Origin: Rikenella microfusus DSM 15922 | GTDB lineage: Bacteria > Bacteroidota > Bacteroidia > Bacteroidales > Rikenellaceae | Assembly (NCBI RefSeq): GCF_000427365.1 | Contig: NZ_KE386488.1 | Location: 868,001-932,000 of the forward strand | Reading direction: 5' to 3' | DNA: 64,000 nucleotides | Shown here: one piece after another, positions 46,915 through 62,226 of the stretch | Layout of the letters: each line of letters starts with the position of its first letter | Numbering within the stretch: position 1 is the stretch's first letter | Translations under genes and position numbers: made by a program | Notes under the pieces: model-generated | Database searches by the model: none | The model's input: the letters and a program-made list of their open reading frames with translations, nothing else | What the model was told of the DNA's origin: nothing

Positions 46915-46924
46915 ATTGAAAAAT

Positions 46925-48791: not shown

Positions 48792-50321
48792 TCAGAACGC
48801 GAATCCGAGCGACACCGACCAACCGTCAGCCGTACCGCAGGCCGAGAACCAATCGTGCGTCCAGCCTCCCTGCGCAAAGATCGCCCGTTCGCCGCCGATC
48901 CGACGACTGACCCGGATTCCCAGCCGCAGACGGGTGAAATCATCCGTCAGATACCGGTAATTGGCCTCCAGCGTGCGGATGCGCGAAGTGCTGAAATCAG
49001 CCTCCGGCAAAGCCAATTCGCCGGAGATTCTGCCCGACCGGGACAGACCGACTTCGGCCTGCAACATCCACTGTTCCCAGGCGCAGATCGCCGCTGCGTC
49101 CATCCCCGCCTGCCAACGCGAGAAAGACATCCGGCGCAGGGCCGACGGATATTCGGAACGGAAATCGAACCAGGAAACCGACGGTTTCACCCACCAGACG
49201 GTATGGGCCGCTGGCAGACTTCCCACGAATCCCGACACAGTCCCGTTCACGATCCGGTCGGAATAGCCCTCGCTCGTTCCGATCTCAGGGTAGATATTTC
49301 CTGCCGGATCGCCGAAGATATGCTCCGTCCCGTTCCGTTTCCGATAACCGCCCTCGGCCGTGACGCCCCAGGCCACCCTGTCCGCACGGCCGTTGTAGGC
49401 CGCTGTGGCGGACGCGGAATGGTCGGCCACGGATACCAGCGGCAGGTTGTTCATCCCGGTCATCTCTTTGCGGAAAGTGAAATAATCGTACCCCGCCGAG
49501 GCCGAAAAACCGTTCCGCGAAGCCGGAAAGAGATCCACCGAACCGCCCGCGCCCCAACCCGAATAATTGGCGCTGGTCTGGACGCCCGCGAAACGGACGT
49601 AATCCATACCCAGCCCGGTCAGGTGGTAAACGGAAGCTTGATAGGTCTCGTTATAGAAAGCGATATCTCCCCGTTGGCCGTATTTCCGCCCCCGCACGGC
49701 CAACGACAGCCGGTACTCCGACCCCACGTTCCGTGCCGCCGCCAACGACCCTTGCAGGTCGGAAACCACGTTCCGGGGCCGGGGATCCACTTCCCGGTAT
49801 TCGAGCAACGCCCGGTAATCCAGCCAGGCCGCCCAGGTCCATTCGCCCGTCGTATGGGCATATCCGCCCGAAAAACGGTAGGTCTCCGAAGACAGGCTAC
49901 CGCCGACCGAATCGGCGGTCACATACGGATAAAGCAAGGCGAAATCAGCGGTTTCGCTCCACCGTACATCGCGCCGCGTACCGTTGGTATAACCGGCTCC
50001 GCCGAAAGCCCGCCCTTTCGGGCCGGTCAGCACGAAAGAACGCGCGGCGAAACCGAACCCTCCGTACCCGTTTCCGTCCTGTGCCAAGGCCGCCGTACCC
50101 CGCCGGCTGTCTTCATAGCCGATCGACAATTCGGAGAGCGAAAATCCCTGCCGATACCACATGGCGGCCGGATTCCGCAAGACTGCGGCAGGCAGGGCCG
50201 CCGCAGGCGACGCATCGAGCATCGCCCGCCGGAAGAGCGGCAGGCTGTCGGCCTGTACGGCCGCTGCCGAAAGGACGGGCTGGCACAAGGCCCAGAGGAA
50301 GATATGTCGGATGCACCTCAC
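48792..50321 (-). CDS. DUF6850-type outer-membrane beta-barrel protein
   Basis: A 509-residue exported protein beginning at a GTG. The signal peptide (HIFLWALCQPVLSAAAVQA) is followed by a barrel-like sequence of alternating aromatic strands (YGGFGFAARSFVLTG, ETYRFSGGYAHTTGEWTWAAW, WSVSLGFAF) that ends in the outer-membrane terminal Phe. It matches the DUF6850 family found beside DUF4876 lipoproteins and TonB receptors in Bacteroidales, as I recall. It is the last minus-strand gene of the putative uptake locus, 1.1 kb downstream of the DUF4876 gene. Role (secondary channel or anchoring) is inference. Confidence 0.75.
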   Translation of the reverse strand: MRCIRHIFLWALCQPVLSAAAVQADSLPLFRRAMLDASPAAALPAAVLRNPAAMWYRQGFSLSELSIGYEDSRRGTAALAQDGNGYGGFGFAARSFVLTGPKGRAFGGAGYTNGTRRDVRWSETADFALLYPYVTADSVGGSLSSETYRFSGGYAHTTGEWTWAAWLDYRALLEYREVDPRPRNVVSDLQGSLAAARNVGSEYRLSLAVRGRKYGQRGDIAFYNETYQASVYHLTGLGMDYVRFAGVQTSANYSGWGAGGSVDLFPASRNGFSASAGYDYFTFRKEMTGMNNLPLVSVADHSASATAAYNGRADRVAWGVTAEGGYRKRNGTEHIFGDPAGNIYPEIGTSEGYSDRIVNGTVSGFVGSLPAAHTVWWVKPSVSWFDFRSEYPSALRRMSFSRWQAGMDAAAICAWEQWMLQAEVGLSRSGRISGELALPEADFSTSRIRTLEANYRYLTDDFTRLRLGIRVSRRIGGERAIFAQGGWTHDWFSACGTADGWSVSLGFAF

Positions 50322-50539
50322 GTATCAGGCGGATTTTTATGAATTTTACGAACGATGGCCGATCGGTTCTGCCGGCGCGATAAAAGCGGGACGACTTATC
50401 GTACAATTACTTGAAGCGTTCTCCCTTATCAGTCCGGAACCGTCCCCGGCATAGCCCGGCGCCGCTCGGCTCCCCGGGCCGTAACTGCCCATGCCCTGCG
50501 GGTTTATGCAGGCAACCGTACGGTTTATTTCAATATTCT

Positions 50540-50618
50540 CCCTTAGTCAGGCCGAAGCCACCCCGGGCGGCGGCCTGCAACTGCGCTACGCTTGTTTCGG
50601 CTCCGCTGGCTCCGGCTA
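50540..50618 (+). repeat. GC-rich palindromic element B (copy in island)
   Basis: Begins GTCAGGCCGAAGCCACCCCG and ends CTCCGCTGGCTCCGGCT. The inverted outer parts (AGGCCGAAGCC / GGCTCCGGCT) and the internal GCGGCCTGCAACTGCG match the elements at 50918-50985 and 60873-60968. Confidence 0.6.
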
Positions 50619-50636
50619 TAAAATTAACTGTACGGT

Positions 50637-50893
50637 TTAAATGTACTGTCTTTCGCCGACGGGCGTTTGTTTTTCTGCGCCCGCTCATGCCACGGGGCAC
50701 CGGCTTCCCCGGACGCCTCATGCCGGCGGGGCACTTGCTTTCTTGGGCGGGCAAGAAAGCAAGCAAAGAACCCGCCGGGAATGCGATTCCCCGCTCCCGA
50801 CTCCCGTCGGATCGGAAAATCGCACATTCCCGGGTCGGCAGTCTCTGCCCGTACTTCGGGTACAAAGTAAGGCACCGAAAGAAGTACTTATTT
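50637..50893. repeat. family-A-like long palindrome inside the island
   Basis: Outer arms TAAATGTACTGTCTTTCG and CGAAAGAAGTACTTATTTA. Inner hairpin TTGCTTTCTTGGGCGGGCAAGAAAGCAAG sits at the position of, and resembles in layout, the GTTCTTTCTTTG hairpin of family A, even to the following CAAAGAAC. The sequence is otherwise different. Confidence 0.55.
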
Positions 50894-50917
50894 AAACCTA
50901 CTTTTAATTTGCAGACT

Positions 50918-50985
50918 CAAGGCCGGAGCCAGCGTGGACTGCTTGCAGGCCTACGCCCGGGGTGGCTCCGGCCTGACTAAAAGAA
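50918..50985 (-). repeat. GC-rich palindromic element B, inverted copy
   Basis: AGGCCGGAGCC at left, GGCTCCGGCCT at right, with TGCTTGCAGGCCTACGCCC in between: the reverse orientation of the element at 60873-60968. Together with 51300-51333 (GGCCTGCACCGGGAGTGGC) it makes the 50322-51453 gap a repeat island with no supportable gene. Confidence 0.6.
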
Positions 50986-51401
50986 AACATGGTAATTAAC
51001 CGTAGAGTTTTTAGTTTCCGCGATTCATAAGAATCACCGGCTTTCGCGGTGCCTCCGGGCACTCCGACCGGGAGTTTGCGCCAATGGGTGGGCGCAAAGC
51101 CGAACGGGTAAAATATTTCGGCAGTATCCCTATTCGGCTTGTTCCGGTTTCCGGACGGCTGTCTCGGTCGCGGGCGAGCCCGCAGGGCGCGCAGGGGGAC
51201 GCGCGCCGAGACATCGAGGGCCGGGAGCTACATAGATATATAAAGTACAAGCCTGAAAGGGATATTTCCGAAATATTTTAACCGTACGATAAATAGCAAG
51301 GCCTGCACCGGGAGTGGCTCCGGACCGGTCGCTGTGCGGACAAACAACCCCAGGGCTATCCGTAATAGTACCCCGAGTCGGGCCGCAGCCGCGTCCCGCG
51401 T

Positions 51402-51446
51402 AGGGCCGGCTCCGGGTTCCGGAATGGAATCGCGGGAGCCGGCCCT
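51402..51446. repeat. hairpin at the 3' end of the DUF4876 gene
   Basis: 12-bp stem AGGGCCGGCTCC / GGAGCCGGCCCT (51402-51413 with 51435-51446). The T-run follows on the plus strand, so as an intrinsic terminator it is oriented the wrong way for the adjacent minus-strand gene, but it may protect its mRNA end. Confidence 0.6.
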
Positions 51447-51453
51447 GCGTTTT

Positions 51454-52728
51454 TTATTTCATCGACGGCGTCACGTTACGTTCGAAATCTTCAGCCGAAT
51501 TGTTCGTATCCTGCAAAATCTGGCGTCCGTCCTCGGTCGTCGAAGCCACTTTGCGGCGTACGGCGGTACCGAAATCGATCGAACCGGCATTCAGATCGCC
51601 GCAATAAGTATAGCTGATATCGAACGACGGGTCGAATACCGGCCATGCGAATTCCGACTTGTAACTGCGGAGTTCCACGGCATCCACCACCCATTCATTC
51701 GGAACCTTGTAGGCCGTAGAACCCTTGGAAGGTTTGCCGGTCACCAGCGTATAAGTATAGGTATAGGCATAATCGTTGAGCCACTTTTCCTTGGTCATCC
51801 CCTCCGGCAGACGGGCGAGAGCATAAGCCTTCGTTCCCTGCTTGTTGAAGACGAAAATAGTTCTCGTATAGCAATAGTAGATATCGAGGTTCGGCACGGC
51901 AGGGTTATCCGTATCCGTAGTAGTACTGCTGGTGGACGACGTGTACCACTCGAAATTCGCGCCGCTGAGGTTCATGAACGACGGATCGGCCTCCTTATGA
52001 TTCTGGGCATTGTCGCACAGGATAATCGACTCGCCGGGCTGTACCGGATAATCGGTTCCCGAACCGGGGATCACCATAAAACAGTCCACCGTAATCGCCT
52101 CGTCGCGGACATCGGGAGTCAGCCCGCTCTTTTTCTGGGAAGTCGTGAATTCCGACTCGCAAAGGGCCAGCCCGTCAGCAAAAAGCACCGTATCGGAGTT
52201 GTTGGTGATTTTGATATACTGATCGCCGTTATACTGTTTCTGTTTGCCGCTGGCATCGGGCGCATAGGCGGAACCTACATAATAAATCTCCGAAATCACG
52301 AAATCGTTGCTGGCTTCCGGGACGACGGAAAGTTTGAGTTCCAGGCTGAAAGTCCCGTCGGCCTTGACCACCACGTTGTTGGCCACGCCCTGCATCTTGA
52401 CGGTAACGGGCGTCGGGGCCTCCTCTTCGTCGGCCGCTTTGGTCAGATCGACCAGCACTTCGGCTTCGCCTTCGAATTTCACGTTATACAGCCCTTCCTC
52501 GACGCTGGCATCCGACGAAAGCGGATATTCGAGTTCTTTCGCCACGCCGGTAGTCACGTTGGTAAAAGTATATTTACCGCTCTTGACATTCATCGAAGTG
52601 ATGTTGCCGGGAGCCGTCAATTCGATCGTCTCGTTGCCGATCGTTACCTGTTTCGGCGTGTTGTCCGAGCAGGAAGCCAACGCCAGGGCCGCGGTGCACA
52701 GCAGCGCGAGTCTTTTCAGTCGTTTCAT
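51454..52728 (-). CDS. DUF4876 surface lipoprotein
   Basis: A 424-residue lipoprotein (lipobox LALASC, Cys20; the SDN after the Cys fits surface-exposed Bacteroidetes lipoproteins weakly). It has an N-terminal Ig-like region (about 25-130), then a domain with FVISEIYYVGSAYAPDASGK, GDQYIKITNNSDTVLFADGL and DCFMVIPGSGTDYPVQPGES, which looks like the lamin-tail (LTD-like) beta-sandwich typical of DUF4876. It follows the TonB-dependent receptor by 71 bp on the same strand. By analogy with receptor-lipoprotein pairs it may capture the substrate at the cell surface; this is inference. Confidence 0.82.
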   Translation of the reverse strand: MKRLKRLALLCTAALALASCSDNTPKQVTIGNETIELTAPGNITSMNVKSGKYTFTNVTTGVAKELEYPLSSDASVEEGLYNVKFEGEAEVLVDLTKAADEEEAPTPVTVKMQGVANNVVVKADGTFSLELKLSVVPEASNDFVISEIYYVGSAYAPDASGKQKQYNGDQYIKITNNSDTVLFADGLALCESEFTTSQKKSGLTPDVRDEAITVDCFMVIPGSGTDYPVQPGESIILCDNAQNHKEADPSFMNLSGANFEWYTSSTSSTTTDTDNPAVPNLDIYYCYTRTIFVFNKQGTKAYALARLPEGMTKEKWLNDYAYTYTYTLVTGKPSKGSTAYKVPNEWVVDAVELRSYKSEFAWPVFDPSFDISYTYCGDLNAGSIDFGTAVRRKVASTTEDGRQILQDTNNSAEDFERNVTPSMK

Positions 52729-52799
52729 GGTTCGTATGTTTTTTAGTTAGACATTTCCGTGTTCTTCGGGGAAATCCCCGCCGGGTATCCCTCTTTTCG

Positions 52800-55535
52800 T
52801 TAAAAAGTCAGGTTCAGTTCCATCCCGAAATAGGGCGACGCCGACCGCCGCGTCAGCACCCCGTTGCGGTAATAGTCCGGATAGGCGCTCAGCAGTCGAT
52901 TGACATACATCGCCAACCGCGCCCACCGGCCGAAATGCTTGGTCGCCTTCAGGTTCACATCCATCGCGAACGGCACTGTCGAACGGTCGAAATAGCTCGC
53001 CGAGTAGGTCTGCACCAGCCATTGCAGCTGCGTATCGTGCTTGTCGGCCTCGGTGAAGGGATGTTCCGTGCCCGAAGCGTCCACCCACGCCACCGGCACC
53101 CCGTCGTTCCACAACGGCTGGCTGCTGGTAAACCAAAGGCACTGGAACGTGGTCGAAAAGGTCAGCCCCAGCTTTTCCAGATGGGTATCGAACGTCACGT
53201 TGGTGTTGAACTGCTGGCGCACCGAGCCGTCTTCCCAGTCGTACAGGCCCACGTATTTGAGCGGATCGCCCCCCAGATTGACCGTCGCCGAACGGTATAT
53301 CGGCGCACTGTTGCTGTACGTCGTCCGGAACCACGCCCCGTTCACCGTGATACGCGTGCGGATGGATTCGATCCGCGGCGAGGAGAACTGGAACTCGATC
53401 CCCCGTTTATCGATCCGGCTGCCGTTCGCCCATCGGCCGTACGTATCCAGCAACGTATCGGTCGTGTAAGGCACGTCCGCCAGGTCGGGCGGCCCGGTGA
53501 GCGTTCCGGGGTCGATCGCGTTCGCGTCGTACTTTTTATACGGCAGGGCTTTGTAGTAGCTCATCGTGCGGAACCCGTCCCGCATCCGTTCCTGAAAATA
53601 GGTTACCGAAAAGTCCATCCCCCGGTGCTGCGTGCTGAAACGGACTTCCCACTTGAGGTTGCGGGCCGGACGCAGGTCGAAATTGATGTTGTCCCACACG
53701 TAAGTCAGCATATTGATCCGCCGCAGGTCGGGATCGGTCGGGTAGTAGTTCAGCTGCACCAGATCGTTGTAAATCGGGTCGGGATAAAGCTGGTCGAGCG
53801 TCGGGGTTTTGGTATGCCGCCCGATCCCCCCGGCGACTTCGAAGTTCCACCGGCCCGCCCCTTCGCCCGCGGCGGGCAGTTTCCATTGCACGTTCACGCG
53901 CGGATCGACATATACTTTGCCGTGCATCGCATACGCTTTGCGGATGTTGAGCGGCATCATGGCACGCACCCCGGCCGTCACCACGAACCGGTGCCGGCCC
54001 GCCTCGAACCGGAGCGCGTCCTCGGCGAAGAGCGACAGCTCGGTGCCGGCCGGAATATCGCTGAACGCCCGCGGTCGGTTGGTATTGCTCGGGTTCAACG
54101 GCCGCGTGATGTCGTACACCTGGCCTTTCCCCCAGTTCTTGTCGTATTTCCAGTCCAGCCCCGCTTTGCCGTCGTGCCGCACGCCGCCCGTCCGGCCTCC
54201 CAGCCCCAGGACGGCCTTGACGAAAGCGTTCATCGGCTTGCCGTCCACCGCCACGTCGGCCGTATATTTATAGGGCAGCAGTTCCGCATCGTGCTCCTGG
54301 CCGTTCGTCATCCCCACCGGCAGCGGGACGGGCCGGTTCAGATAGACCTGTTTGGTCTGTTCCATCCGGCTCACCTCCTGCGCCAGCGACGCCGTGATAT
54401 CCAGCGATTTTACCGCCCCGGCATCGAAAAAGACCCAATGGAAAGCAGAGGCAAATGCGAAACGGTTGTACGAGGCTTTGAAGCGGTCGCCGGCCATCGA
54501 AGCGTCGGCGTCCGTTTTTTCCTTGTCGAGCGAACCGGTGTAGTCCAGGCTCAGCCGCCAGCGGAGCGAGGCGCGGTCGGTCACACTGCGACTGTTGTAA
54601 CGCAGCGATCCGGTGATACGCCTGTAATTGGCCAACGTGTTGCGCGGATCGCTGCGGGCCGTCAGGTAATCTCCGTCGATATTCAGCACCTTGTCGTCCC
54701 CCTTGAGCGCGATCCCTTTGCCCGCCGAGACCAGTTTTCCGTATTCGTCGGCCTTGAATCGCGCTTCGAACGGCGTGGCGGTCGCCCGCCGCCGGATATT
54801 GACCAGCCCGCTGGTCAGGTTGCCGTATTCTACCGAGGGGATGCCCCGCACGATCTCGACGGATTCGATGTTGTCGGTCGGGATGGCCCGCATGTCCAGC
54901 CCGCGCGAGACGAGCGAATTATCGATACTCGACCCCGGTACGGCCTGCAAGTTGGCGTCGGTGCTGATCGGCACCCCGTCCACCGTGAACGCCGTCCCCA
55001 GCGAGGAGATGTCGTAATCGTCGCTGCTGTTGCCTGCTTCGCGCAACTTGATCAGGTTTGGAGCGCCCAACCGGGGGGTCTGCGCCATACCGCCGGGAAG
55101 CAGGGAGAGCAAATCCGAGAAACTCGACGGCTGGATATGTTCCATCGCCTGCCGGTCGATGCGCGAGGCGCTGGTGGCCCCTTTCGACTCTTTGGCGGTC
55201 ACCACCACCTCCTGCGCCGTCAGCGGCTTGGCCACCAGCCCGATCCGCAACGTGGTGTCGCCTGCGATCCGCACGGTACGTTCCCAATCCCGGAACCCCA
55301 CGAAAGCGACTTTAACCCGGTAGTCTCCGGGTTGCAGGCCGGAAAAGACGAATGCACCCTGCGCGTCGGTAATGGCCCCGCGCGGCGAACTGCTCCCGGC
55401 CGGGAAAAGCTGTACCAGCGCGTAGTCCTGCGGCTGCCCCGTAGCGGCATCGGCGACGGTACCCCGCAGAATGGCTCCCGCCGCGGCGCCGGGGGCGACC
55501 AACAGGAGCAGTATGGAAACGAAAAACCGGGGCAT
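52800..55535 (-). CDS. TonB-dependent outer-membrane receptor
   Basis: A 911-residue receptor. The signal peptide (MPRFFVSILLLLVAPGAAA) is followed by a carboxypeptidase-regulatory-like domain (about 23-105: LRGTVADAATGQPQDYALVQ). The plug (RIDRQAMEHIQPSSFSDLLS, PGGMAQTPRLG, TDNIESVEIVRGIPSVEYGN, LTSGLVNIRRR) carries the classical TonB-receptor signature. A 22-strand-type barrel ends SPYFGMELNLTF. The start at 55535 is favoured by the signal peptide and the -7 box at 55555-55562. The partner lipoprotein (DUF4876) is downstream. Plug features resemble siderophore or cofactor receptors rather than SusC, but the substrate is unknown. Confidence 0.92.
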   Translation of the reverse strand: MPRFFVSILLLLVAPGAAAGAILRGTVADAATGQPQDYALVQLFPAGSSSPRGAITDAQGAFVFSGLQPGDYRVKVAFVGFRDWERTVRIAGDTTLRIGLVAKPLTAQEVVVTAKESKGATSASRIDRQAMEHIQPSSFSDLLSLLPGGMAQTPRLGAPNLIKLREAGNSSDDYDISSLGTAFTVDGVPISTDANLQAVPGSSIDNSLVSRGLDMRAIPTDNIESVEIVRGIPSVEYGNLTSGLVNIRRRATATPFEARFKADEYGKLVSAGKGIALKGDDKVLNIDGDYLTARSDPRNTLANYRRITGSLRYNSRSVTDRASLRWRLSLDYTGSLDKEKTDADASMAGDRFKASYNRFAFASAFHWVFFDAGAVKSLDITASLAQEVSRMEQTKQVYLNRPVPLPVGMTNGQEHDAELLPYKYTADVAVDGKPMNAFVKAVLGLGGRTGGVRHDGKAGLDWKYDKNWGKGQVYDITRPLNPSNTNRPRAFSDIPAGTELSLFAEDALRFEAGRHRFVVTAGVRAMMPLNIRKAYAMHGKVYVDPRVNVQWKLPAAGEGAGRWNFEVAGGIGRHTKTPTLDQLYPDPIYNDLVQLNYYPTDPDLRRINMLTYVWDNINFDLRPARNLKWEVRFSTQHRGMDFSVTYFQERMRDGFRTMSYYKALPYKKYDANAIDPGTLTGPPDLADVPYTTDTLLDTYGRWANGSRIDKRGIEFQFSSPRIESIRTRITVNGAWFRTTYSNSAPIYRSATVNLGGDPLKYVGLYDWEDGSVRQQFNTNVTFDTHLEKLGLTFSTTFQCLWFTSSQPLWNDGVPVAWVDASGTEHPFTEADKHDTQLQWLVQTYSASYFDRSTVPFAMDVNLKATKHFGRWARLAMYVNRLLSAYPDYYRNGVLTRRSASPYFGMELNLTF

Positions 55536-55554
55536 CTTTATTCGAATAGCGGCA

Positions 55555-55585
55555 CAAAGATATTCGCGCCCTCCAGCCGCCGCAA
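55555..55585 (-). promoter_or_regulatory. promoter of the TonB receptor operon
   Basis: -7 TATCTTTG (plus CAAAGATA, 55555-55562) and -33 TTG (plus CAA, 55583-55585) separated by 20 nt. The ATG at 55535 is about 20 nt downstream. Confidence 0.75.
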
Positions 55586-55603
55586 TCGCCATATATGAGG
55601 ATA

Positions 55604-55645
55604 AAACGGTCCGGGCCTCCCCACTTTTGGGGAGGCCCGGACCGC
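55604..55645 (-). terminator. terminator of the DUF4932 gene
   Basis: 15-bp GC-rich stem GGTCCGGGCCTCCCC / GGGGAGGCCCGGACC (55608-55622 with 55629-55643). On the minus strand it is followed by GTTTTAT. Confidence 0.8.
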
Positions 55646-55679
55646 CTCGCAGAAATCGTACTGCCGGCCGACTCCGGCG

Positions 55680-57128
55680 TCACTCGGCTCGGGTACGGAA
55701 CTTAACCAGATAGTCTTCGAGCATATGGATGCCTTCGGGCGTTACGAAGCTGAGGCCGTGTAGCACCACCAGTTCGTATTCGTGGTTCGGTTCAAGCTCG
55801 ACCGCCAGGGTCAGTGCCGTTTTATCTTTGGAGTAGTTTTTAACGTCGAACTTAAAAAGCGTCGCCTCGCCGCCCGGCCCTGCATTAAAAGCGTAGCCTC
55901 GTCCGACCAGCGGTTTATCGAAACGAATGGTGATTTCGGTCAGTTTCGGGTCCACATCCTGCGCTCCGTTGCCGAAGGGTTCGATGGCTATGACATGCAG
56001 GGCGTTGGCTTTCATGCGCTCTTTCTCAGCCGCCCGGCGGGCACGAATAGTGTCGATCTGCGCCGCCGTCTCATTGCAGAATTCCGCGATACGGGGCGTG
56101 AAACTGCGGAAATCGGGATATTTCTCCCGGTCGGCCTCATATTCGCCCAACAGTTCCACCGCCTCCGGCATCCAGATGAACCGGCGGCCGATCTGCATCC
56201 ACATTTCTTTATCGACAGCCGCCGTGTCGGCCTGCTCCATCAGATAACGGATCACTGCCGCACGGACGAAAGTCTCGTTCAGCACCGTCTTCCCATCCCC
56301 GTAAGCCTGCGCGCGCATCGGTTCGGCATAAGCCGAGAAAAGCCGCTCTGCAGGCCGCGCCAGCTCCGCGTCGCCCTCCAAAGCCGGATTGACGAACGAA
56401 TGGCAAAATTCATGCACGATGGTATTCCGGAACATTTCCGGATCGAAATACGGCTTTCCGTCCCGCATGCCCCACGACCCCATAAAAGCATACCGATCGA
56501 CGGTCGAATCGGGATAAACGATATCGCCCCCGTAATTGCCTCCGCCGAAACCCATGCCGACGACCGGCACCATACCTCCTTGCGCTTCTTTACCGAAAAA
56601 ACGGGCGAACCAGCCCATATCGATTTCGGCGAAAACATCCCCGAACGCCTTTTCCACCTGAGTGAATAATGAATCCTGTCGGGCGAAAAACTCCCCGCAG
56701 CGGGCCTCTTTGTAGAATTTGTTCAGCAGCTTAATGAATTTCGTGCCGTATTTGACTCCCCATCGGCTTTCCGGCTGCATCTCGGTGAGTGGCAGCCGCG
56801 GGCACAGATGCGGCGGATCGGTCAGATAAACGCCCATAATAGGCACGGCATTGTAACTCAACCCGGTCCTTTCGCGCATCATTCTCATATACTCCACGGC
56901 CGGATGCTCTTTATAGGGGGCGAACCAGGCGTCAAGGCTATCGGTATATGCGGGAGTGAATTTCGATTGATACTCCGGATAGCCGGCCAGCCGGGCGACG
57001 ATGGTCATCAATTCGACCCGCCGGTCCACCGCGGGTTCTGAAACGCCGGTCGTAGCCGTCGCTTTGGGCTTTGCGGCAGCCCCGAGGACGATCATCAAGC
57101 CGGTAAACAGGAAAACGATCTTTTTCAT
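55680..57128 (-). CDS. DUF4932 exported zinc metallopeptidase-like protein
   Basis: A 482-residue secreted protein (signal MKKIVFLFTGLMIVLGAAA). A gluzincin-type active site is visible: NTIVHEFCHSFVNP has the HExxH zinc motif, with a downstream Glu candidate in AYAEPM or LNETFVR. The C-terminal about 110 residues form an Ig-like (Big_5-type) domain (DPKLTEITIRFDKPLVG, LTLAVELEPNHEYELVV). The overall layout matches DUF4932. It is transcribed away from the CTHIC lipoprotein and ends in a terminator before the receptor promoter, so it is a separate unit of the locus. A role in releasing ligand from host protein is speculation. Confidence 0.82.
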   Translation of the reverse strand: MKKIVFLFTGLMIVLGAAAKPKATATTGVSEPAVDRRVELMTIVARLAGYPEYQSKFTPAYTDSLDAWFAPYKEHPAVEYMRMMRERTGLSYNAVPIMGVYLTDPPHLCPRLPLTEMQPESRWGVKYGTKFIKLLNKFYKEARCGEFFARQDSLFTQVEKAFGDVFAEIDMGWFARFFGKEAQGGMVPVVGMGFGGGNYGGDIVYPDSTVDRYAFMGSWGMRDGKPYFDPEMFRNTIVHEFCHSFVNPALEGDAELARPAERLFSAYAEPMRAQAYGDGKTVLNETFVRAAVIRYLMEQADTAAVDKEMWMQIGRRFIWMPEAVELLGEYEADREKYPDFRSFTPRIAEFCNETAAQIDTIRARRAAEKERMKANALHVIAIEPFGNGAQDVDPKLTEITIRFDKPLVGRGYAFNAGPGGEATLFKFDVKNYSKDKTALTLAVELEPNHEYELVVLHGLSFVTPEGIHMLEDYLVKFRTRAE

Positions 57129-57227
57129 GGTACGAATACATATATTTCGACGGAACAGAATCGGGCAATTCGGATGCCATTCATACCAATATACTGTTAA
57201 TCAATAGTATCCAAGAACATCACCTGT

Positions 57228-57350
57228 CGAAAAGTGTCTAAAAAATAGACACCGGATGTCAAAAAATCAGACACTTCCGGGATAGCCATTTATTAGGATA
57301 TCCGAAGGTACTTATCCCCATATTTGGGGATTCCCTACCCGAAAGGGGTA
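57228..57350. promoter_or_regulatory. cluster of palindromes between divergent DUF4932 and lipoprotein genes
   Basis: The 338-bp divergent gap holds AGTGTCTA-AAAAA-TAGACAC and a second pair ending CAGACACT (57230-57273), the perfect dyad ATCCCCA-TATT-TGGGGAT (57314-57331), and TACCC-GAAAG-GGGTA (57335-57350). They look like operators or attenuator hairpins controlling one or both directions. No gene is seen in the gap. Confidence 0.5.
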
Positions 57351-57353
57351 TTT

Positions 57354-57361
57354 TACCTTTG
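57354..57361 (+). promoter_or_regulatory. -7 box of the lipoprotein operon
   Basis: TACCTTTG, immediately downstream of the TACCC/GGGTA dyad and 105 bp before the ATG at 57467. Confidence 0.55.
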
Positions 57362-57466
57362 CCGACGCGCAGGTATGTCCGAACCGGGACGCACAAGGTA
57401 AGGCAACCTGCCCGGAAAGGTCGCTCTCCGGAGCCGCATAGGAAACCAATTAAAACCAACCATACC

Positions 57467-58066
57467 ATGAAAAAGCACATTCTGTTCTCGCTCGCCCTTG
57501 CCGGCGCACTGACTTTCGCTTCTTGCGGAAACGGCACCCCAAACGCCGGTACGGCCGAAACGACCGAAAACCAGTCGGTTGCGACGAAGACGATGGATCT
57601 CGATTCGCTGCTGTCCGTCGCCGAAACGCTGGTGGATCAGCCGATCGTCGTAGAGGGTATCTGCACGCATATCTGCTCGAAAGGGGGCGGCAAACTTTTC
57701 CTGATGGGCAGCGACGACACGAAAACGATCCGGGTGGAAGCGGGCGAAAAAATCGGGAAGTTTCCGCAGGATGTGGTCAATAATATCCTGACGATCAACG
57801 GCATCCTACGCGAACAGCGTATCGACGAAGCGTATCTCTCGCAATGGGAGGAACAGGTGAAAACTCAAACCACTGAACAGCACGGCGCAAACGGCGCGGG
57901 CTGCGACTCGGAACAAAAGGCGCGCGGCGAGGCGACGGGAGCGGTTTCGGCTGCGGATCGTATCGCGGCGTTCCGCCAGCGCATCGCTGACCGGAAGGCC
58001 AAGGATGGAAAGGAGTACCTCTCGTTCTATTATATCGACGGAGATTCCTACACGATCAATAAATAA
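57467..58066 (+). CDS. lipoprotein with CTHIC motif (OB-fold-like)
   Basis: A 199-residue lipoprotein (lipobox TFASC, Cys20). The core (QPIVVEGICTHICSKGGGKL, FLMGSDDTKTIRVEAG) reads like a small OB-fold domain with a Cys-Thr-His-Ile-Cys motif that could bind a metal or haem. The C-terminal third has a further Cys and a charged helix (AADRIAAFRQRIADRKAKDG). It is unnamed. It is the first gene on the plus-strand arm of the uptake locus, followed by repeat element A4 and the PepSY-type membrane protein. A periplasmic carrier role is inference. Confidence 0.75.
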   Translation: MKKHILFSLALAGALTFASCGNGTPNAGTAETTENQSVATKTMDLDSLLSVAETLVDQPIVVEGICTHICSKGGGKLFLMGSDDTKTIRVEAGEKIGKFPQDVVNNILTINGILREQRIDEAYLSQWEEQVKTQTTEQHGANGAGCDSEQKARGEATGAVSAADRIAAFRQRIADRKAKDGKEYLSFYYIDGDSYTINK

Positions 58067-58093
58067 TCCCCTCTCTCGTAAATCATAACTTTT

Positions 58094-58418
58094 AACCGTT
58101 CGTTTATTCGCACTGTTTAGGTTTGAGGCGACTGTTCTCTTTGTGAACAAAGAGAACCAGAAAAACTTTTTGAGATGCTTGCGCATCTCTTGAGCCTGGC
58201 GGATGACCTTTGCCTTTGAAAGCTTGTTCTGTAACGGATAGGGGACTTTAGTATCGTTATACCCGATGTCCCCTATCCGTTACAGAACAAAGAAGTCTGT
58301 AAGAAAAGGTTTTCGACAAACTGAGGCGTTGCAAACCTGCTCGAAAGTTTCTTTGGTTCTTTCTTTTCAAAGAAAGAACAGTGGACTCTACCCTCAATGT
58401 ACGGATAAACGAACGGAT
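58094..58418. repeat. intercistronic palindromic element A4
   Basis: About 325 bp in opposite orientation to A1, A2 and A5. Arms AACCGTTCGTTTATTCGCAC and GTACGGATAAACGAACGG. Contains GTTCTCTTTGTGAACAAAGAGAAC, GAGATGCTTGCGCATCTC, the central stem TTCTGTAACGGATAGGGGAC/GTCCCCTATCCGTTACAGAA, and GTTCTTTCTTTTCAAAGAAAGAAC. It begins 27 nt after the lipoprotein stop and ends 22 nt before the next start. It is nearly identical to the reverse complement of A5. Confidence 0.92.
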
Positions 58419-58439
58419 TAAGAAATTAAGATATAAAGG

Positions 58440-59015
58440 ATGGCATCGTCATTTATGACCGGAGTACGGAAAGCGAGCCGTCGTTTGCACCGCGACTTTT
58501 CGTACTTTTTCGCCGGCGTGATTCTGATTTACGCCATATCCGGGATTGCCCTGAATCATAAAGCGACCTTCAACAGCAACTACGACATCAGCCGGCATAC
58601 CTTCGCCGTCGAAGGAGGCATTCCGCCCCGCAGCGGCATCACCGAAGAGTGGGTCAGAAAAAACCTTCTGGAACCCGTAGGGGAAGAAAACGCCTATACC
58701 AAGCACTACTTTCCGAAAGAAGGCACCCTGAAAGTTTTCCTCAAAGGAGGTTCCAGCGTCGTGGCCGACCTCGGCACCGGCCAAGCCGAATACGAAGCCT
58801 TCAAACGGCGTCCCTTTTTCAGTGCCATCAGCCGCCTGCACTACAACCCCGGCCGCTGGTGGACCGTTTTTTCCGACATCTTCGGCATCGCCCTGATCCT
58901 CATTACGGTCACCGGATTCACCATGATGAAAGGGCGCAAAGGATTCCTCGGCTGGGGCGGCATCGAAATGCTCGCCGGACTGCTTTTCCCGTTGGCGTTC
59001 CTGTTCTTCTTTTAG
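58440..59015 (+). CDS. PepSY-associated transmembrane protein
   Basis: A 191-residue inner-membrane protein. TM1 (YFFAGVILIYAISGIALNHK) follows RRLHRDFSY. A periplasmic PepSY-like segment (about 45-125) leads to ISRLHYNPGRWWTVFSDIFG, TM2 (IFGIALILITVTGFTMM) and a third helix near the C-terminus (LLFPLAFLFFF). Conserved His residues near TM ends are typical of PepSY_TM proteins, several of which are linked to reduction of ferric siderophores or flavin/haem chemistry. It is next to an ABC exporter/importer pair in the locus. Substrate is unknown. Confidence 0.85.
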   Translation: MASSFMTGVRKASRRLHRDFSYFFAGVILIYAISGIALNHKATFNSNYDISRHTFAVEGGIPPRSGITEEWVRKNLLEPVGEENAYTKHYFPKEGTLKVFLKGGSSVVADLGTGQAEYEAFKRRPFFSAISRLHYNPGRWWTVFSDIFGIALILITVTGFTMMKGRKGFLGWGGIEMLAGLLFPLAFLFFF

Positions 59016-59033
59016 GGTAGGGGCGAAGCCTGC

Positions 59034-59110
59034 GGAAATTAGGGCAATTACAGTCCGGATCGGGTGCCGCTCGATACCCTCCGCGGGGGAGGCTTCGGCC
59101 CGCGCGGTTC
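59034..59110. repeat. GC-rich palindrome between PepSY and ABC genes
   Basis: Outer parts GGGGCGAAGCCTGCGGA and TCCGCGGGGGAGGCTTCGGCC are complementary with small bulges, spanning the gap between two co-directional genes. It resembles family B in layout. Confidence 0.55.
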
Positions 59111-59142
59111 CGCGAACCGCCTGAATCGATAAATTCAAACAT

Positions 59143-60030
59143 ATGACAGACAACATCATAGAGTGCCGTAGCCTGACCCACTACTACGGGAAACGGCTCA
59201 TTTACGAAAACCTGAGTTTCGGCGTTCCCCGGGGCCGCATTCTCGGGCTGCTCGGCAAAAACGGGACAGGTAAAACCACCACCATCAATATCCTGAGCGG
59301 ATACCTCAAACCCCGTTCCGGCGCGTGTTACATCTTCGGCGAGAATATCCAAGAGATGGATCCGCGTACCCGGCAGAACATCGGTCTGCTGATCGAAGGG
59401 CACATCCAGTACACCTTCATGAGCATCGCGCAGATCGAAAAATTCTACGCCCCGTTCTATCCCCGCTGGAACCGGGCGGCCTATTACGAACTGATGGACA
59501 AACTGCACGTCGCGCCCGGCCAGCGCATTTCGCGCATGTCGTGCGGCCAGCGGTCGCAGGTAGCCCTCGGCCTGATCCTCGCCCAGAATCCCGACCTGCT
59601 CGTGCTCGACGACTTTTCGCTGGGTCTCGACCCCGGCTACCGGCGGCTCTTTATCGAATACCTGCGCGAATACGCCAAAGCCGAAAACAAGACCGTCTTC
59701 CTCACCTCGCACATCATCCAGGACATGGAACGGCTGATCGATGACTGCATCATGCTCGACTATGGCCGGATCCTGCTTCAGAAACCGGTAGGCGAACTGC
59801 TCGACACCGTCCGGCAATATACCTTCACGATGACCGCCGAAGGGCCGCTGCCCGAAGACGAACGGATCTACCATCCGTCGGCGATCCGCAACAGCGGAGA
59901 GTTTTTTTCGTTCCTGCCCGAAGAGGAAGTCCGCCGGATACTGGACGCGCAGAAAGTACCCTATGCCGGTCTCGAAAGCCGCCGCGTCGGCCTCGAAGAC
60001 GCTTTCATCGGCCTGACCGGAAAATATTAG
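59143..60030 (+). CDS. ABC transporter ATP-binding protein
   Basis: A 295-residue ATPase. Walker A is GLLGKNGTGKTTT (about 36-48), the signature is RMSCGQRSQVALGL (a degenerate LSGGQ), Walker B is LLVLDDFSLGLDPG (about 152), and the switch His is in LTSHIIQDME. The D-loop and Walker B Asp-Asp rather than Asp-Glu (LDDFSLGLD) is unusual: the catalytic Glu position is Asp. The C-terminal 70 residues form a regulatory tail. It pairs with the permease at 60175. Direction of transport is unknown; the family is closest to export-type (CcmA/NatA-like) ATPases. Confidence 0.9.
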   Translation: MTDNIIECRSLTHYYGKRLIYENLSFGVPRGRILGLLGKNGTGKTTTINILSGYLKPRSGACYIFGENIQEMDPRTRQNIGLLIEGHIQYTFMSIAQIEKFYAPFYPRWNRAAYYELMDKLHVAPGQRISRMSCGQRSQVALGLILAQNPDLLVLDDFSLGLDPGYRRLFIEYLREYAKAENKTVFLTSHIIQDMERLIDDCIMLDYGRILLQKPVGELLDTVRQYTFTMTAEGPLPEDERIYHPSAIRNSGEFFSFLPEEEVRRILDAQKVPYAGLESRRVGLEDAFIGLTGKY

Positions 60031-60042
60031 CCTGAATCCCGC

Positions 60043-60100
60043 GGCAGCGGCGGGCCGCTCCGGGCAGTAAAGCTGCCGCGGGCGACGGAGCGGCCCGAAA
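60043..60100. repeat. GC-rich palindrome between ABC ATPase and permease
   Basis: GCGGCAGC...GCTGCCGC and CGGGCCGCTCCG...CGGAGCGGCCCG are interleaved inverted repeats filling the short intergenic gap. Confidence 0.55.
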
Positions 60101-60174
60101 ATCGAAAACACGCAATCGACCGGATGTTCCGCGCCCGCACATACAACTCCGGATACGGCCCAACCAAAAGATAC

Positions 60175-60846
60175 ATGGAAAAAGCGATATTTTACAAAGA
60201 GTGGATCAAGACCCGCTGGTATTTCCTGCTCTCGACCCTCCTGCTGGCCGCGTTCACGGGATATTGCCTGCTGAACGTGAGCCGGATTATCGAATTCAAA
60301 GGCGCAGTGCACCTCTGGGAAGTCATGCTCGAACGCGACGCCGTTTTCGTCGATCTGCTGACCTACCTGCCCCTGCTGGCAGGCCTGCTGATGGCCGTTT
60401 TCCAGTTCGTGCCGGAAATGCAGCAGAGCCGCCTGAAACTGACCCTGCATCTGCCATACCCGCATTACCGGATGGTCGCATCCATGCTGCTGTACGGCAC
60501 GCTGGCCCTTTGCGTCACGTATCTGGTCAGCCTCGCGCTGATCGGCATCTGTTTCGACGCGTTAGTCGCCCGCGAGCTGTTCGCCCGCGTCGTCCTCACC
60601 GCCTTACCCTGGTACGCGGCCGGTCTGGCCGCTTATTTCCTGACGGCCTGGGTTTGCCTGGAACCGACCTGGAAGCGGCGTATCCTCAATATGCTGGTCG
60701 GCGCCGGCGTACTGCGTATCTTCTTCCTGGCCCCCGCTCCCGAAGCCTATAACGCTTTCCTGCCGGGCCTGACGCTTTTCACCCTGCTGCTGAGCCTGCT
60801 CGGCATGCTTTCCGTTTACCGGTTCAAAACCGGCGAACAGGACTGA
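60175..60846 (+). CDS. ABC transporter permease
   Basis: A 223-residue membrane protein with six predicted hydrophobic helices (WYFLLSTLLLAAFTGY, LLTYLPLLAGLLMAVFQF, MLLYGTLALCVTYLVSLALI, LTALPWYAAGLAAYFLT, MLVGAGVLRIFFLA, LTLFTLLLSLLGMLSVY). Short cytoplasmic segments such as PEMQQSRLKLTLHLPYPHY look like the coupling region for the ATPase. The start at 60175 (MEKAIFYKEW) is typical of small ABC-2-type permeases. It is the membrane partner of the ATPase upstream. Confidence 0.85.
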   Translation: MEKAIFYKEWIKTRWYFLLSTLLLAAFTGYCLLNVSRIIEFKGAVHLWEVMLERDAVFVDLLTYLPLLAGLLMAVFQFVPEMQQSRLKLTLHLPYPHYRMVASMLLYGTLALCVTYLVSLALIGICFDALVARELFARVVLTALPWYAAGLAAYFLTAWVCLEPTWKRRILNMLVGAGVLRIFFLAPAPEAYNAFLPGLTLFTLLLSLLGMLSVYRFKTGEQD

Positions 60847-60872
60847 TTATATCGGGTTATTCGTATAGGGAA

Positions 60873-60968
60873 ACCGGCCTGGAGCTTGCGGCGAACGTAG
60901 TGAGCCGCGCAGGCCGGAGCCACCCCCGGCGAAGGCCTGCAAGCAATCCTCGCTGGCTCCGGCTGCGT
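60873..60968 (+). repeat. GC-rich palindromic element B between permease and DUF4857
   Basis: Core CAGGCCGGAGCCACCCCCGG followed by GCGAAGGCCTGCAAGC and CTGGCTCCGGCT. AT-rich shoulders GGGTTATTCGTA and CGAATAGCTAACCC pair across it. The same core occurs at 50540 and, inverted, at 50918. Confidence 0.65.
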
Positions 60969-61005
60969 TCCGAATAGCTAACCCAACCGTAAAACCATTA
61001 CACCG

Positions 61006-62226
61006 ATGATACGAACAAGCAAAATACTCCTGTACTTCATCGCCACCGTTCTGTTGGCATGGACCCTGCCCTGGGCCTACGGTCTTCTCGGCGGCGCTTC
61101 GCCGAGCGCACCGTTCACGCTGTACAGCTCCGTCAGCGGCGAATTTTCCTGGCTCGAAGCCACCGATCGCGGCATCGAATATCAAGACGCCGCCGGACGA
61201 CGTTTCACCGATAAACAGTTCGACAGCATACTGCCTTTCTTTTATTACCGCCAGTTGATTTCCGACAATCGGTTCCCGGACAGCATCCGGGGCGTGGCGG
61301 TCACTCCAAAACTGGCCCAGGCCGGCAACTTCATGTTCCGCAGCTCGCCGAGGCAGGTGAATGCCAACGTCCCCGGCATCTATCCGTTGCTGGAATCCAT
61401 GTCGGGCCGCGTCGATCTCGAAGCGTCGGACGACGTGTTCCGGATCGACCGGAACGGCATTACCTTCATCGATTGCGAGACCAATACCGTCAAAGCCGAC
61501 AAAAGCGCGGCGTTCACCGAAATGATGCGTAAAAAAGGGTTCGTTTTTCCGGCACGGGTGATCGCCGGGAACCCGACCACGCGCAAAGAATACGACGAAG
61601 GTTTTTTCATCACCGACAACGAAGGTAAACTCTTCCACCTCAAACAGACGAAAGGACGGCCTTTCGTCCGGGCCGTCGAGCTGCCGGAAGGGTTGGAGGT
61701 CGCGCAGATATTCGTCACGGAATACCGCGGCCGCCAGTACTTCGCTTTCCTGACCGACAAGGCCGGACAGTTTTACGCGCTGACCACCGGGGATTACGCC
61801 CTGCACCCCGTGGCCATCCCTCCTCTCGACCTGACGCGCCAGGGTGTCATGATCGTGGGCAACCCGTTCGACTGGACAGTGAAGGTCAGCGATACGGACG
61901 GAGCGGAACATTTCTATGCCATCGACGGCGAAACTTTCGGCCGGTTGAAAGAGCTGCATTATCCGGCTCCGGAACCCACGGCGCTCGAAAAGGCCGGGAA
62001 GTTCGTCTTTCCGTTCCGGCTCTCGTTCACTTCCGGTTCGGACACCGAAGTCGTGCCGCGTGTAACGGACATATCCGCCTGGGCGCTGATCCTGGGGCTG
62101 GTGTTGGCCGCCGCGTTCTGCGTAATCCGCAAGACCAATCCCGTACGGCAGGCCCCTCAATGCCTCTTTATCCTCGTATGCGGGTTGTATGCCTTTATCG
62201 GTCTGTTGCTCTTTTCCCGGAAATAG
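61006..62226 (+). CDS. DUF4857 membrane protein
   Basis: A 406-residue protein with one N-terminal membrane helix (ILLYFIATVLLAWTLPWAYG), a large periplasmic beta-rich domain (about 30-345; FFITDNEGKLFHLKQTKGR, YFAFLTDKAGQFYALTTGD, which read like propeller-type strands) and two C-terminal helices (ISAWALILGLVLAAAFCVI, LFILVCGLYAFIGLLLF). It matches DUF4857, found with this ABC pair in Bacteroidales. The architecture suggests a periplasmic accessory subunit of the transporter. Function is unknown. Confidence 0.82.
   Translation: MIRTSKILLYFIATVLLAWTLPWAYGLLGGASPSAPFTLYSSVSGEFSWLEATDRGIEYQDAAGRRFTDKQFDSILPFFYYRQLISDNRFPDSIRGVAVTPKLAQAGNFMFRSSPRQVNANVPGIYPLLESMSGRVDLEASDDVFRIDRNGITFIDCETNTVKADKSAAFTEMMRKKGFVFPARVIAGNPTTRKEYDEGFFITDNEGKLFHLKQTKGRPFVRAVELPEGLEVAQIFVTEYRGRQYFAFLTDKAGQFYALTTGDYALHPVAIPPLDLTRQGVMIVGNPFDWTVKVSDTDGAEHFYAIDGETFGRLKELHYPAPEPTALEKAGKFVFPFRLSFTSGSDTEVVPRVTDISAWALILGLVLAAAFCVIRKTNPVRQAPQCLFILVCGLYAFIGLLLFSRK

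What the first reader, a model, noticed from the sequence alone, without database searches (positions are those of the whole stretch)
48792..62226. Putative uptake system: DUF6850 barrel, DUF4876 lipoprotein, TonB receptor, DUF4932 peptidase, CTHIC lipoprotein, PepSY protein, ABC pair, DUF4857
Nine genes in two divergent arms cover every compartment: receptor and surface lipoprotein, an extra barrel, a secreted zinc peptidase, a periplasmic Cys/His lipoprotein, a PepSY-type membrane protein (relatives are linked to reductive siderophore use), an ABC pair and a periplasmic accessory membrane protein. Several members are domains of unknown function. The set fits capture of a metal complex, haem or another cofactor from protein, with reduction or release and transport. 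The substrate is not evident, and the system as a whole is not one I can name.
Basis: partly seen in the sequence, partly recalled or inferred. Interest (0 to 1): 0.75.

Follow-up and report, generated by a model that had tools for sequence, protein, structure and literature searches.

The report
Iron-scavenging system of gut Bacteroidales
A set of eight neighbouring genes, kept together in many gut bacteria and probably switched on when iron is short, looks like a machine that pulls in iron bound to a carrier and frees it by reduction between the two membranes, with an unusual ATP-driven part whose job is still unknown.

Summary
The nine genes are real and correctly placed. The arms form one conserved cassette: receptor, DUF4876, ATPase and permease accompany DUF4857 in 29 of 32 and 58 of 60 stretches with at least 9 kb upstream (sets overlap). 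The DUF4932 peptidase is the exception, seen only in Rikenella/Millionella-type cassettes.

Iron is the supported metal. The B. thetaiotaomicron locus of matching gene order, BT3625-33, rises 37- to 128-fold in low iron (PMC10434189). The window's divergent promoter carries a palindrome (57313-57332) that in the same genome also precedes flavodoxin and TetR genes; it is found in only part of the family. FeoB follows DUF4857 in two loci.

Best reading: a Xus/Fox/Hiu-like reductive ferric-chelate uptake system (surface capture, TonB import, periplasmic reduction by the PepSY protein, ferrous iron entry by FeoB) with an added ABC-2-like transporter bearing a propeller-like subunit (DUF4857) and an OB-fold Cys/His lipoprotein. 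The chelate and the ABC step are inferred. The published label 'putative fimbrillin synthesis/transport locus' is not supported.

The parts
48792..50321 (-). DUF6850 predicted outer-membrane barrel; core member of the surface arm
Evidence: Pfam PF21012 E 9.3e-92; follows DUF4876 in most relatives.
51454..52728 (-). DUF4876 lipoprotein, predicted surface capture partner of the receptor
   Evidence: Pfam PF16215 E 5.7e-65; related to solved structure 4q1z_A 'Putative lipoprotein', E 7.2e-19. Lipoprotein and surface location inferred from sequence.
52800..55592 (-). TonB-dependent receptor (true ATG probably at 55535)
   Evidence: CarboxypepD_reg 2.7e-16, Plug 2.9e-11
55680..57128 (-). DUF4932 putative secreted zinc peptidase, lineage-specific accessory, first gene of the left arm
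   Evidence: Pfam PF16286 E 6.1e-56; HEXXH (HEFCH, residue 239) and its counterparts in all 6 sequences aligned, window included; in 4 of the 80 named loci
57313..57332 (.). palindromic operator-like site TATCCCCATATTTGGGGATT in the divergent promoter
   Evidence: one mismatch to AATMCCYANNNNTRGGKATT; exact matches between the divergent genes in Rikenella relatives L069, L070 and L071
57467..58066 (+). Cys/His (CTHIC) lipoprotein, OB fold with helical insertion
   Evidence: AlphaFold2 mean pLDDT 81.6; OB-fold matches, Foldseek E 8.2e-5 and VIA Z 12.4 over 100 residues at 2.9 A; C66, H68 and C70 in 87, 94 and 94 of 95 sequences, duplicates included
58440..59015 (+). three-TM PepSY_TM protein, predicted periplasmic ferric reductase
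   Evidence: PF16357 7.5e-11, PF03929 6.2e-7; H17, H40 and H134 in 79 of 79 sequences, duplicates included, near the ends of hydrophobic segments
59143..60030 (+). ABC ATPase, DrrA/GldA/ABCA-like
   Evidence: PF00005 1.2e-20; best solved relatives ABCA3/ABCA1; NCBIfam best PmtA, DrrA, GldA, all below their cut-offs
60175..60846 (+). ABC permease, ABC-2-like, about six TM by hydropathy
   Evidence: no Pfam match for the window protein; 1 of 32 homologues matches ABC2_membrane_4 at 1.9e-5 and 2 match ABC2_membrane_2 at 0.05 or weaker
61006..62226 (+). DUF4857: N-terminal TM, periplasmic propeller-like domain, C-terminal TM segments
   Evidence: PF16149 E 2.3e-106; AlphaFold2 mean pLDDT 92.1; weak propeller matches; hydropathy

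Best explanation
A system, controlled by iron starvation, for taking up an iron chelate and releasing the iron by reduction. The DUF4876 surface lipoprotein captures a ferric chelate (a foreign siderophore or similar Fe(III) complex) and hands it to the TonB receptor, which imports it to the periplasm. The PepSY protein passes electrons across the inner membrane through haem held by its invariant histidines and reduces Fe(III), so the iron lets go. The Cys/His OB-fold lipoprotein receives Fe(II) or takes part in the redox step. Fe(II) enters by the genome's separate FeoB. The ABC-2-like transporter with the DUF4857 propeller uses ATP to clear the stripped chelator from the periplasm (perhaps out through the DUF6850 barrel) or to pull it off the metal. 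Shown here: gene content, conservation, co-occurrence, an operator shared with iron-stress genes in this genome, invariant residues. Taken from a paper: iron induction of the B. theta locus. Inferred: each transport and redox step, the direction of the ABC step, the chelate.
For: BT3625-33 rises 36.7- to 128-fold in low iron and 14- to 19-fold in the colitis column of Table 7 (PMC10434189 passages). Its nine positions match B. faecis L110, with two positions (3631, 3629) annotated otherwise in the paper; BT sequences were not compared. The paper's discussion already suggests that such ABC/TonB loci serve iron acquisition from siderophores. Operator: 25 sites against 4 for the reversed pattern in 5 genomes. 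In the own genome 3 of 4 sites precede the cassette, a flavodoxin (52 bp) and a TetR gene (62 bp). Cassette upstreams have a site within one mismatch in 5 of 31 and 19 of 69 loci against 0 and 0 for the reversed pattern. FeoB directly follows DUF4857 in L080 and L120; flavodoxin and DUF2023-like genes lie near the cassette in L037 and L096. PepSY His17/40/134 in 79 of 79; known PepSY_TM relatives are haem-linked ferrisiderophore reductases (PMC13038864, PMC13001220 abstracts and passages). A NapH-like polyferredoxin stands where PepSY is absent in 7 of 37 stretches, never with it. One FeoB in the genome.
Against: No substrate was identified. The operator is not recognisable upstream of many cassettes: 23 of 31 and 39 of 69 loci have three or more mismatches, among them B. 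faecis L110 and B. xylanisolvens L103, the loci nearest in gene order to the iron-induced B. theta locus. 16 of 37 and 16 of 80 stretches have neither PepSY nor the polyferredoxin, some of them cut by contig ends. The window's Cys/His protein has Lys where 90 of 95 have a second His. The surface arm occurs without the inner arm (14 of 260 genomes), often beside a HEAT protein with a weak peptidase match, which would fit haem or protein-bound iron as well. No iron-response data exist here for the window's own genus. FeoB adjacency is 2 of 80 named loci and 0 of 37 unnamed, without a chance estimate. PMC13142918 calls the Fe(II) importer of B. theta unknown.
Confidence: 0.55

Rival explanations
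1. Haem or haemoprotein iron capture: the surface proteins and the secreted peptidase take haem from proteins, the receptor imports haem, and the inner arm strips, reduces or exports it or its porphyrin.
For: P. gingivalis DUF4876-TonB genes rise in low iron (PMC10434189) and a P. gingivalis DUF4876 gene is lower in excess hemin, log2 -5.4 (PMC10470040; passages). The accessory slot holds a HEXXH peptidase in Rikenella. Surface-only loci carry a HEAT protein directly beside DUF6850 in 9 of 20 stretches; 2 of 4 tested members have a sub-threshold peptidase C25 match.
Against: The genome has a separate HmuY gene. No HmuY, HmuT or HmuS family came up in the cassette's Pfam and NCBIfam scans. A PepSY-type reductase plus neighbouring FeoB fits non-haem iron better.
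Confidence: 0.26
2. Uptake of copper or another metal: the PepSY protein is a copper reductase like CrpH and the Cys/His lipoprotein is a copper chaperone like NosL.
For: CrpH suggests that PepSY_TM proteins encoded with a TonB receptor can serve copper (PMC13038864, abstract and passages). Cys/His motif in the lipoprotein. The ABC-lipoprotein-polyferredoxin grouping recalls Nos maturation genes (recalled).
Against: Operator shared with flavodoxin and TetR genes in this genome; iron induction of the B. theta locus; FeoB adjacency.
Confidence: 0.06
3. A fimbrillin synthesis and transport locus, as labelled in PMC10434189 for BT3625-33.
For: A fimbrillin-like plus Fib_succ_major protein lies in the locus in some Bacteroides.
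Against: That protein or its Fib_succ_major relative was found in only 7 of the 137 stretches searched with one query; a DUF6383/T9SS-type relative was found in 16 and DUF4932 in 4 plus the window. Many cassettes have no gene in that slot.
Confidence: 0.02
4. Two unrelated operons that happen to be neighbours.
For: The surface arm can stand alone (14 of 260 genomes without DUF4857), and two stretches (L057, L067) have ABC-DUF4857 with a SusCD-like pair instead.
Against: Co-occurrence 34 of 35 against 14 of 260, Fisher p 4e-32, not corrected for relatedness. The blocks appear in several orders and directions yet stay together.
Confidence: 0.02

Closest known systems
XusABC xenosiderophore utilisation system of Bacteroides thetaiotaomicron (BT2063-65)
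   Same: TonB receptor, surface lipoprotein and PepSY inner-membrane protein, raised by iron starvation (PMC13142918 abstract and passages; PMC10434189 passages)
   Different: Lipoprotein is DUF4876, not DUF4374; adds DUF6850, the Cys/His OB-fold lipoprotein, an ABC pair and DUF4857
FoxB / HiuB PepSY ferrisiderophore reductases (Pseudomonas, Caulobacter)
   Same: PepSY_TM family, invariant His near membrane edges, partnered with a TonB receptor
   Different: 191 aa with three hydrophobic segments; FoxB-type proteins have at least four TM segments, so pairing or dimerisation would be needed for the same two-haem layout
B. thetaiotaomicron BT3625-33 iron-induced locus
   Same: Matching nine-position gene order by annotation; taken as a member of this cassette (sequences not compared)
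   Different: Carries a fimbrillin-like gene where the window has DUF4932; no function is assigned beyond 'putative fimbrillin synthesis/transport' in the passages read
NosR-NosL-NosDFY nitrous oxide reductase maturation set (recalled)
   Same: Inner-arm layout: polyferredoxin (in some loci), metal-binding-type lipoprotein, ABC-2 ATPase/permease plus periplasmic subunit
   Different: Periplasmic subunit is propeller-like DUF4857; iron rather than copper is supported
FsrB-FeoAB-ExsFGH of Bradyrhizobium
   Same: Periplasmic reduction of xenosiderophores, FeoAB import of Fe(II), a dedicated exporter acting on siderophore in the periplasm (abstract)
   Different: ExsFGH is RND, not ABC, and exports the ferric form

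Membership tests
XusABC | TonB-dependent receptor in the locus | tested here: met
   Plug and CarboxypepD_reg domains
XusABC | XusB-type (DUF4374) surface lipoprotein | tested here: not met
   The lipoprotein is DUF4876 and no DUF4374 match was listed. No DUF4374 match in the own genome either, though the 14 controls were also silent
XusABC | PepSY-domain inner-membrane protein | tested here: met
   PF16357 (42.8 bits, cut-off 27) and PF03929 (30 bits, cut-off 28.8); PF03929 only 25 bits, under its cut-off, in the genome search
XusABC | binds and imports ferric siderophore | not testable with these tools
   needs biochemistry
FoxB/HiuB PepSY_TM ferric reductase | conserved His on both membrane faces for haem | tested here: met
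   H17, H40 and H134 in 79 of 79; the faces are inferred from hydropathy and haem binding was not tested
FoxB/HiuB PepSY_TM ferric reductase | at least four TM segments in one chain | tested here: not met
   three hydrophobic segments, 18-42, 139-166 and 168-191
FoxB/HiuB PepSY_TM ferric reductase | sequence match to the solved FoxB | tested here: inconclusive
   profile search of the PDB listed no FoxB
ABC-2 exporter | ATPase of the DrrA/GldA/ABCA type | tested here: met
   nearest models, though no NCBIfam cut-off was reached
ABC-2 exporter | ABC2_membrane permease | tested here: inconclusive
   1 of 32 homologues at 1.9e-5, the window protein has none
NosDFY maturation machine | periplasmic NosD subunit fold | tested here: inconclusive
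   DUF4857 model matches propellers weakly, best VIA Z 9.3 over 128 residues at 3.5 A; NosD not listed, which does not exclude it
iron-starvation (Fur-type) regulon | operator shared with known iron-stress genes | tested here: met
   for the window: flavodoxin and TetR genes downstream of two of the other three sites in the genome. Not met upstream of many other cassettes
iron-starvation (Fur-type) regulon | regulator identity and iron response | not tested
   no regulator was assigned

The most novel reading that the evidence does not exclude
The inner arm is a new ATP-driven metal-release machine of the Bacteroidales envelope. A propeller subunit (DUF4857) riding on an ABC-2 transporter works together with a reductase (PepSY or a NapH-like polyferredoxin) and an OB-fold Cys/His lipoprotein to pull iron from its chelate in the periplasm and expel the empty chelator, closing a capture-reduce-recycle cycle with DUF6850 as the exit barrel.
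Probability: 0.22. Interest if true: 0.82.

Novelty: new variant of a known kind. Interest (0 to 1): 0.56.

Why it matters
Iron supply helps decide which gut bacteria persist in inflammation. In the Bacteroides passages seen here, XusABC and haem uptake are the iron systems with an assigned role. This cassette's DUF4857 gene is in 35 of 295 genomes sampled from the window's order, and the cassette is found in B. fragilis and P. vulgatus records among the named loci. Its B. theta form is strongly iron-induced, yet these searches found no tested function. The work links several undescribed families to iron, proposes an operator for part of the iron regulon of the group, and makes the question of what clears stripped chelators from the Bacteroides periplasm testable in a laboratory strain.

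Tried and rejected
DUF4857 alignment A2 could not seed a collection scan; a six-sequence alignment was used instead (the best 80 of 131 confirmed loci were returned). PDB sequence searches for DUF4857, DUF6850, the Cys/His lipoprotein, the receptor, the permease and PepSY gave nothing useful. Foldseek and VIA on the Cys/His model list general OB folds (nucleic-acid binders, tRNA synthetases); no haem or metal chaperone is among the rows shown, which excludes nothing. DUF4857 propeller matches are weak and mostly eukaryotic WD proteins; NosD is not among the rows shown. DUF4374 (XusB) was not found in the own genome, but the controls were silent too. I considered and set aside an ABC importer of the BtuCD/FecCD kind. 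I considered a copper system and kept it as a rival. A Bacteroides -33/-7 promoter at the window operator was looked for by eye; the spacing did not fit and no claim is made. Literature on the operator: a search for its half-sites with 'Bacteroides' found 53 papers, 10 listed, none of those titles on Bacteroides iron regulation; a Fur box search with Bacteroides found 20, 10 listed, none titled on it.

Caveats on counts. The counts of 95 and 79 sequences include the window and such duplicates. The operator consensus was first seen in these loci and widened to M/Y/R/K after Rikenella-like sites were seen; the more independent evidence is the genome-wide count against the reversed pattern and the identity of the other genes. 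Against the strict consensus the window site scores 11 of 16, no better than shuffles. The confidence in the best explanation was lowered from 0.58 to 0.55 for that reason, and the haem rival raised from 0.24 to 0.26. Accessory-slot counts come from single-query searches and not every hit was checked to lie exactly in the slot.
Full report
WHAT IS THERE. The left arm (minus strand) reads DUF4932, TonB receptor, DUF4876, DUF6850. The right arm (plus strand) reads Cys/His lipoprotein, PepSY protein, ABC ATPase, permease, DUF4857. The arms diverge from a 338-bp intergenic stretch (57129-57466). The genome is 2.88 Mb. The closest named DUF4857 relatives are Rikenella and Millionella records, so the window is taken to be Rikenellaceae-like.

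CONSERVATION. DUF4857 was sought in 295 genomes of the order and found in 35, the window's included. Stretches of up to 20 kb around 37 sites and 80 named loci were mapped with profiles built from the window proteins. Of the stretches with at least 9 kb upstream, TonB receptor, DUF4876, ATPase and permease are all present in 29 of 32 and in 58 of 60; the two sets overlap and are counted apart. The order shuffles between genomes (three blocks: receptor-DUF4876-DUF6850; CTHIC-PepSY; ABC-permease-DUF4857), but the blocks stay together. At genome level 34 of 35 DUF4857 genomes hold DUF4876 against 14 of 260 others (Fisher p 4e-32, not corrected for relatedness), and 33 of 35 hold DUF6850 above its cut-off, against 14 of 260. 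The surface block also stands alone. Exceptions: L057 and L067 pair ABC-DUF4857 (duplicated) with a SusCD-like pair; L064 has no receptor or DUF4876 in its stretch; L078 lacks the surface block and L146 a recognised receptor in the stretch held.

DUF4932 IS AN ACCESSORY. It was found in the window and in 4 of the 80 named loci, all Rikenella/Millionella type, and in none of the 37 unnamed stretches. One Rikenella record with the cassette (L071) lacks it in its stretch. HEXXH is present in 6 of 6 sequences. Other genes found between or beside the arms elsewhere are a DUF6383/T9SS-type secreted protein (relatives in 16 stretches) and a fimbrillin/Fib_succ_major protein (relatives in 7); many cassettes have neither. 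In 20 stretches chosen for a surface block without the inner arm, a HEAT protein follows DUF6850 directly in 9; 2 of 4 members tested have a sub-threshold peptidase C25 match. A variable secreted factor, sometimes peptidase-like, is therefore part of the theme.

IRON. (1) The B. thetaiotaomicron locus BT3625-33 matches B. faecis L110 position by position, although the paper annotates BT3631 as DUF4876 and BT3629 as PepSY where L110 has DUF6850 and the Cys/His lipoprotein; BT sequences were not compared. It is raised 36.7- to 128-fold in low iron and 14- to 19-fold in the colitis column of Table 7 (PMC10434189, passages). [quoted passage not shown] theta among its three species; its discussion suggests in general that induced ABC/TonB loci may serve iron acquisition from siderophores. 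The fimbrillin gene is only one of the variable genes. P. gingivalis DUF4876-TonB genes PG1019-22 rise 21- to 215-fold in low iron, and a DUF4876 gene is lower in excess hemin (PMC10470040, passages).

(2) A palindrome count in 66 non-redundant upstream regions gave AATACC-N8-GGTATT. Scored against AATACCTANNNNTAGGTATT, 34 of 84 receptor upstreams and 10 of 94 CTHIC upstreams reach 13 of 16, against 2 of 890 shuffles; the same sequences suggested the motif, so this is not independent. Genome-wide, the degenerate form gives 25 sites in 5 genomes against 4 for the reversed pattern. Two of the 25 are cassettes (the window's and P. vulgatus). Of the other 23, fetched lie within 450 bp upstream of an ORF, one lies inside a gene and one has no clear gene. 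By Pfam the genes include flavodoxin and TetR (own genome), hemerythrin, a TonB receptor, an LRR protein, two methyltransferases and an esterase; by resemblance of sequence also flavodoxin (P. vulgatus), TetR (B. faecis), hemerythrin (two more genomes) and enolase (three). Flavodoxin, TetR, hemerythrin and LRR genes are listed as iron-induced in PMC10434189; orthology was not tested gene by gene. In the window's own genome 3 of 4 sites precede the cassette, flavodoxin and TetR. Rikenella relatives L069, L070 and L071 have exact sites between the divergent genes; L072 and L074 have two mismatches.

Against this: upstream of the receptor or CTHIC gene only 5 of 31 unnamed and 19 of 69 named loci have a site within one mismatch, and 8 of 31 and 30 of 69 within two (reversed pattern: 0 and 0, then 0 and 1). 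B. faecis and B. xylanisolvens cassettes have none (four mismatches), and B. fragilis has two mismatches. The operator therefore ties the window and part of the family to iron-stress genes, not every cassette.

(3) FeoB follows DUF4857 directly in L080 and L120, 2 of 80 named and 0 of 37 unnamed. Flavodoxin and DUF2023-like genes lie near the cassette in L037 and L096 and flavodoxin in L120 (names for L037 recalled from sequence). The own genome has one FeoB and one HmuY.

MECHANISM. PepSY: three hydrophobic segments; His17, 40 and 134 in 79 of 79. Known PepSY_TM relatives use His-bound haems to reduce ferrisiderophores in the periplasm (PMC13038864, PMC13001220, abstracts and passages), and XusC is assigned that step in B. 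theta (PMC13142918, passage). The window protein has fewer TM segments than FoxB, so a dimer is likely (inference). In 7 of 37 stretches a NapH-like polyferredoxin is present and PepSY is not; the two never co-occur in either set, and 16 of 37 and 16 of 80 stretches show neither. CTHIC lipoprotein: OB fold with a helical insertion; C66, H68, C70 and C146 in 87, 94, 94 and 89 of 95; position 72 is His in 90 but Lys in the window. A role in Fe(II) binding or redox is inferred. ABC pair: ATPase nearest DrrA/GldA/ABCA types, permease weakly ABC-2, DUF4857 a membrane-anchored propeller-like protein; in the Bacteroides-type members of the alignment the C-terminal TM segments are missing. This is the layout of an exporter or of a mechanical machine like NosDFY (recalled), not of a known metal importer. 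Since FeoB can import Fe(II), and Bradyrhizobium uses an exporter to keep periplasmic siderophore in balance (PMC10760861, abstract), export of the stripped chelator is the preferred reading; it is inferred. PMC13142918 leaves the Fe(II) importer of B. theta unknown.

VERDICT. A known principle (TonB import, periplasmic reduction, Fe(II) import) in a new variant with several undescribed parts. Iron is supported by transcript data on a counterpart, by the operator in this genome and by neighbouring iron genes in a few relatives. The chelate and the ABC step are open.

Noticed in passing
58093-58415; also 63428-63750 and related ends at 46303-46924: A 323-nt repeat able to form a very stable hairpin (z -12) lies between the CTHIC and PepSY genes; the genome search listed 93 matches, many of them the same place on both strands. 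It looks like a MITE or REP-type element inside the operon.
   Followed up: partly
50514-51009 and 60910-60963: A second, GC-rich repeat family sits in the DUF6850-DUF4876 gap and between the permease and DUF4857 genes.
   Followed up: no
L193, L206, L209: The iron-type operator (one mismatch) lies 56-60 bp upstream of an enolase-like gene in three Bacteroides genomes (enolase name recalled from sequence), hinting at iron control of glycolysis.
   Followed up: partly
L152, L153, L154, L159, L161, L167, L168, L169, L170: Surface-arm loci without the inner arm carry a ~730-aa HEAT protein directly after DUF6850; 2 of 4 tested have a sub-threshold peptidase C25 (gingipain family) match.
   Followed up: partly
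L055, L056, L058, L061, L062, L064, L068: A NapH-like polyferredoxin stands in place of PepSY, often with another small lipoprotein and in some loci sigma-factor-like genes (sigma names by eye).
   Followed up: partly
L187 (G000:C2:1316464): A perfect iron-type operator in the window's genome without a clear gene downstream.
   Followed up: partly
43838-44860 and 47910-48347: Near the cassette: a Dyp-type-peroxidase-like ORF and a small secreted PepSY-like ORF (names recalled from sequence, no family search).
   Followed up: no
L120:5682-6716, L037:1-3581: Cation-efflux (CDF; for L120) and ZIP-like (name recalled) transporter genes beside the cassette in one branch, suggesting metal handling beyond iron there.
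   Followed up: no
L103, L110 (B. xylanisolvens, B. faecis cassettes): The cassettes nearest in order to the iron-induced B. theta locus show no recognisable copy of the operator upstream of receptor or CTHIC gene; how they are regulated is unexplained.
   Followed up: no
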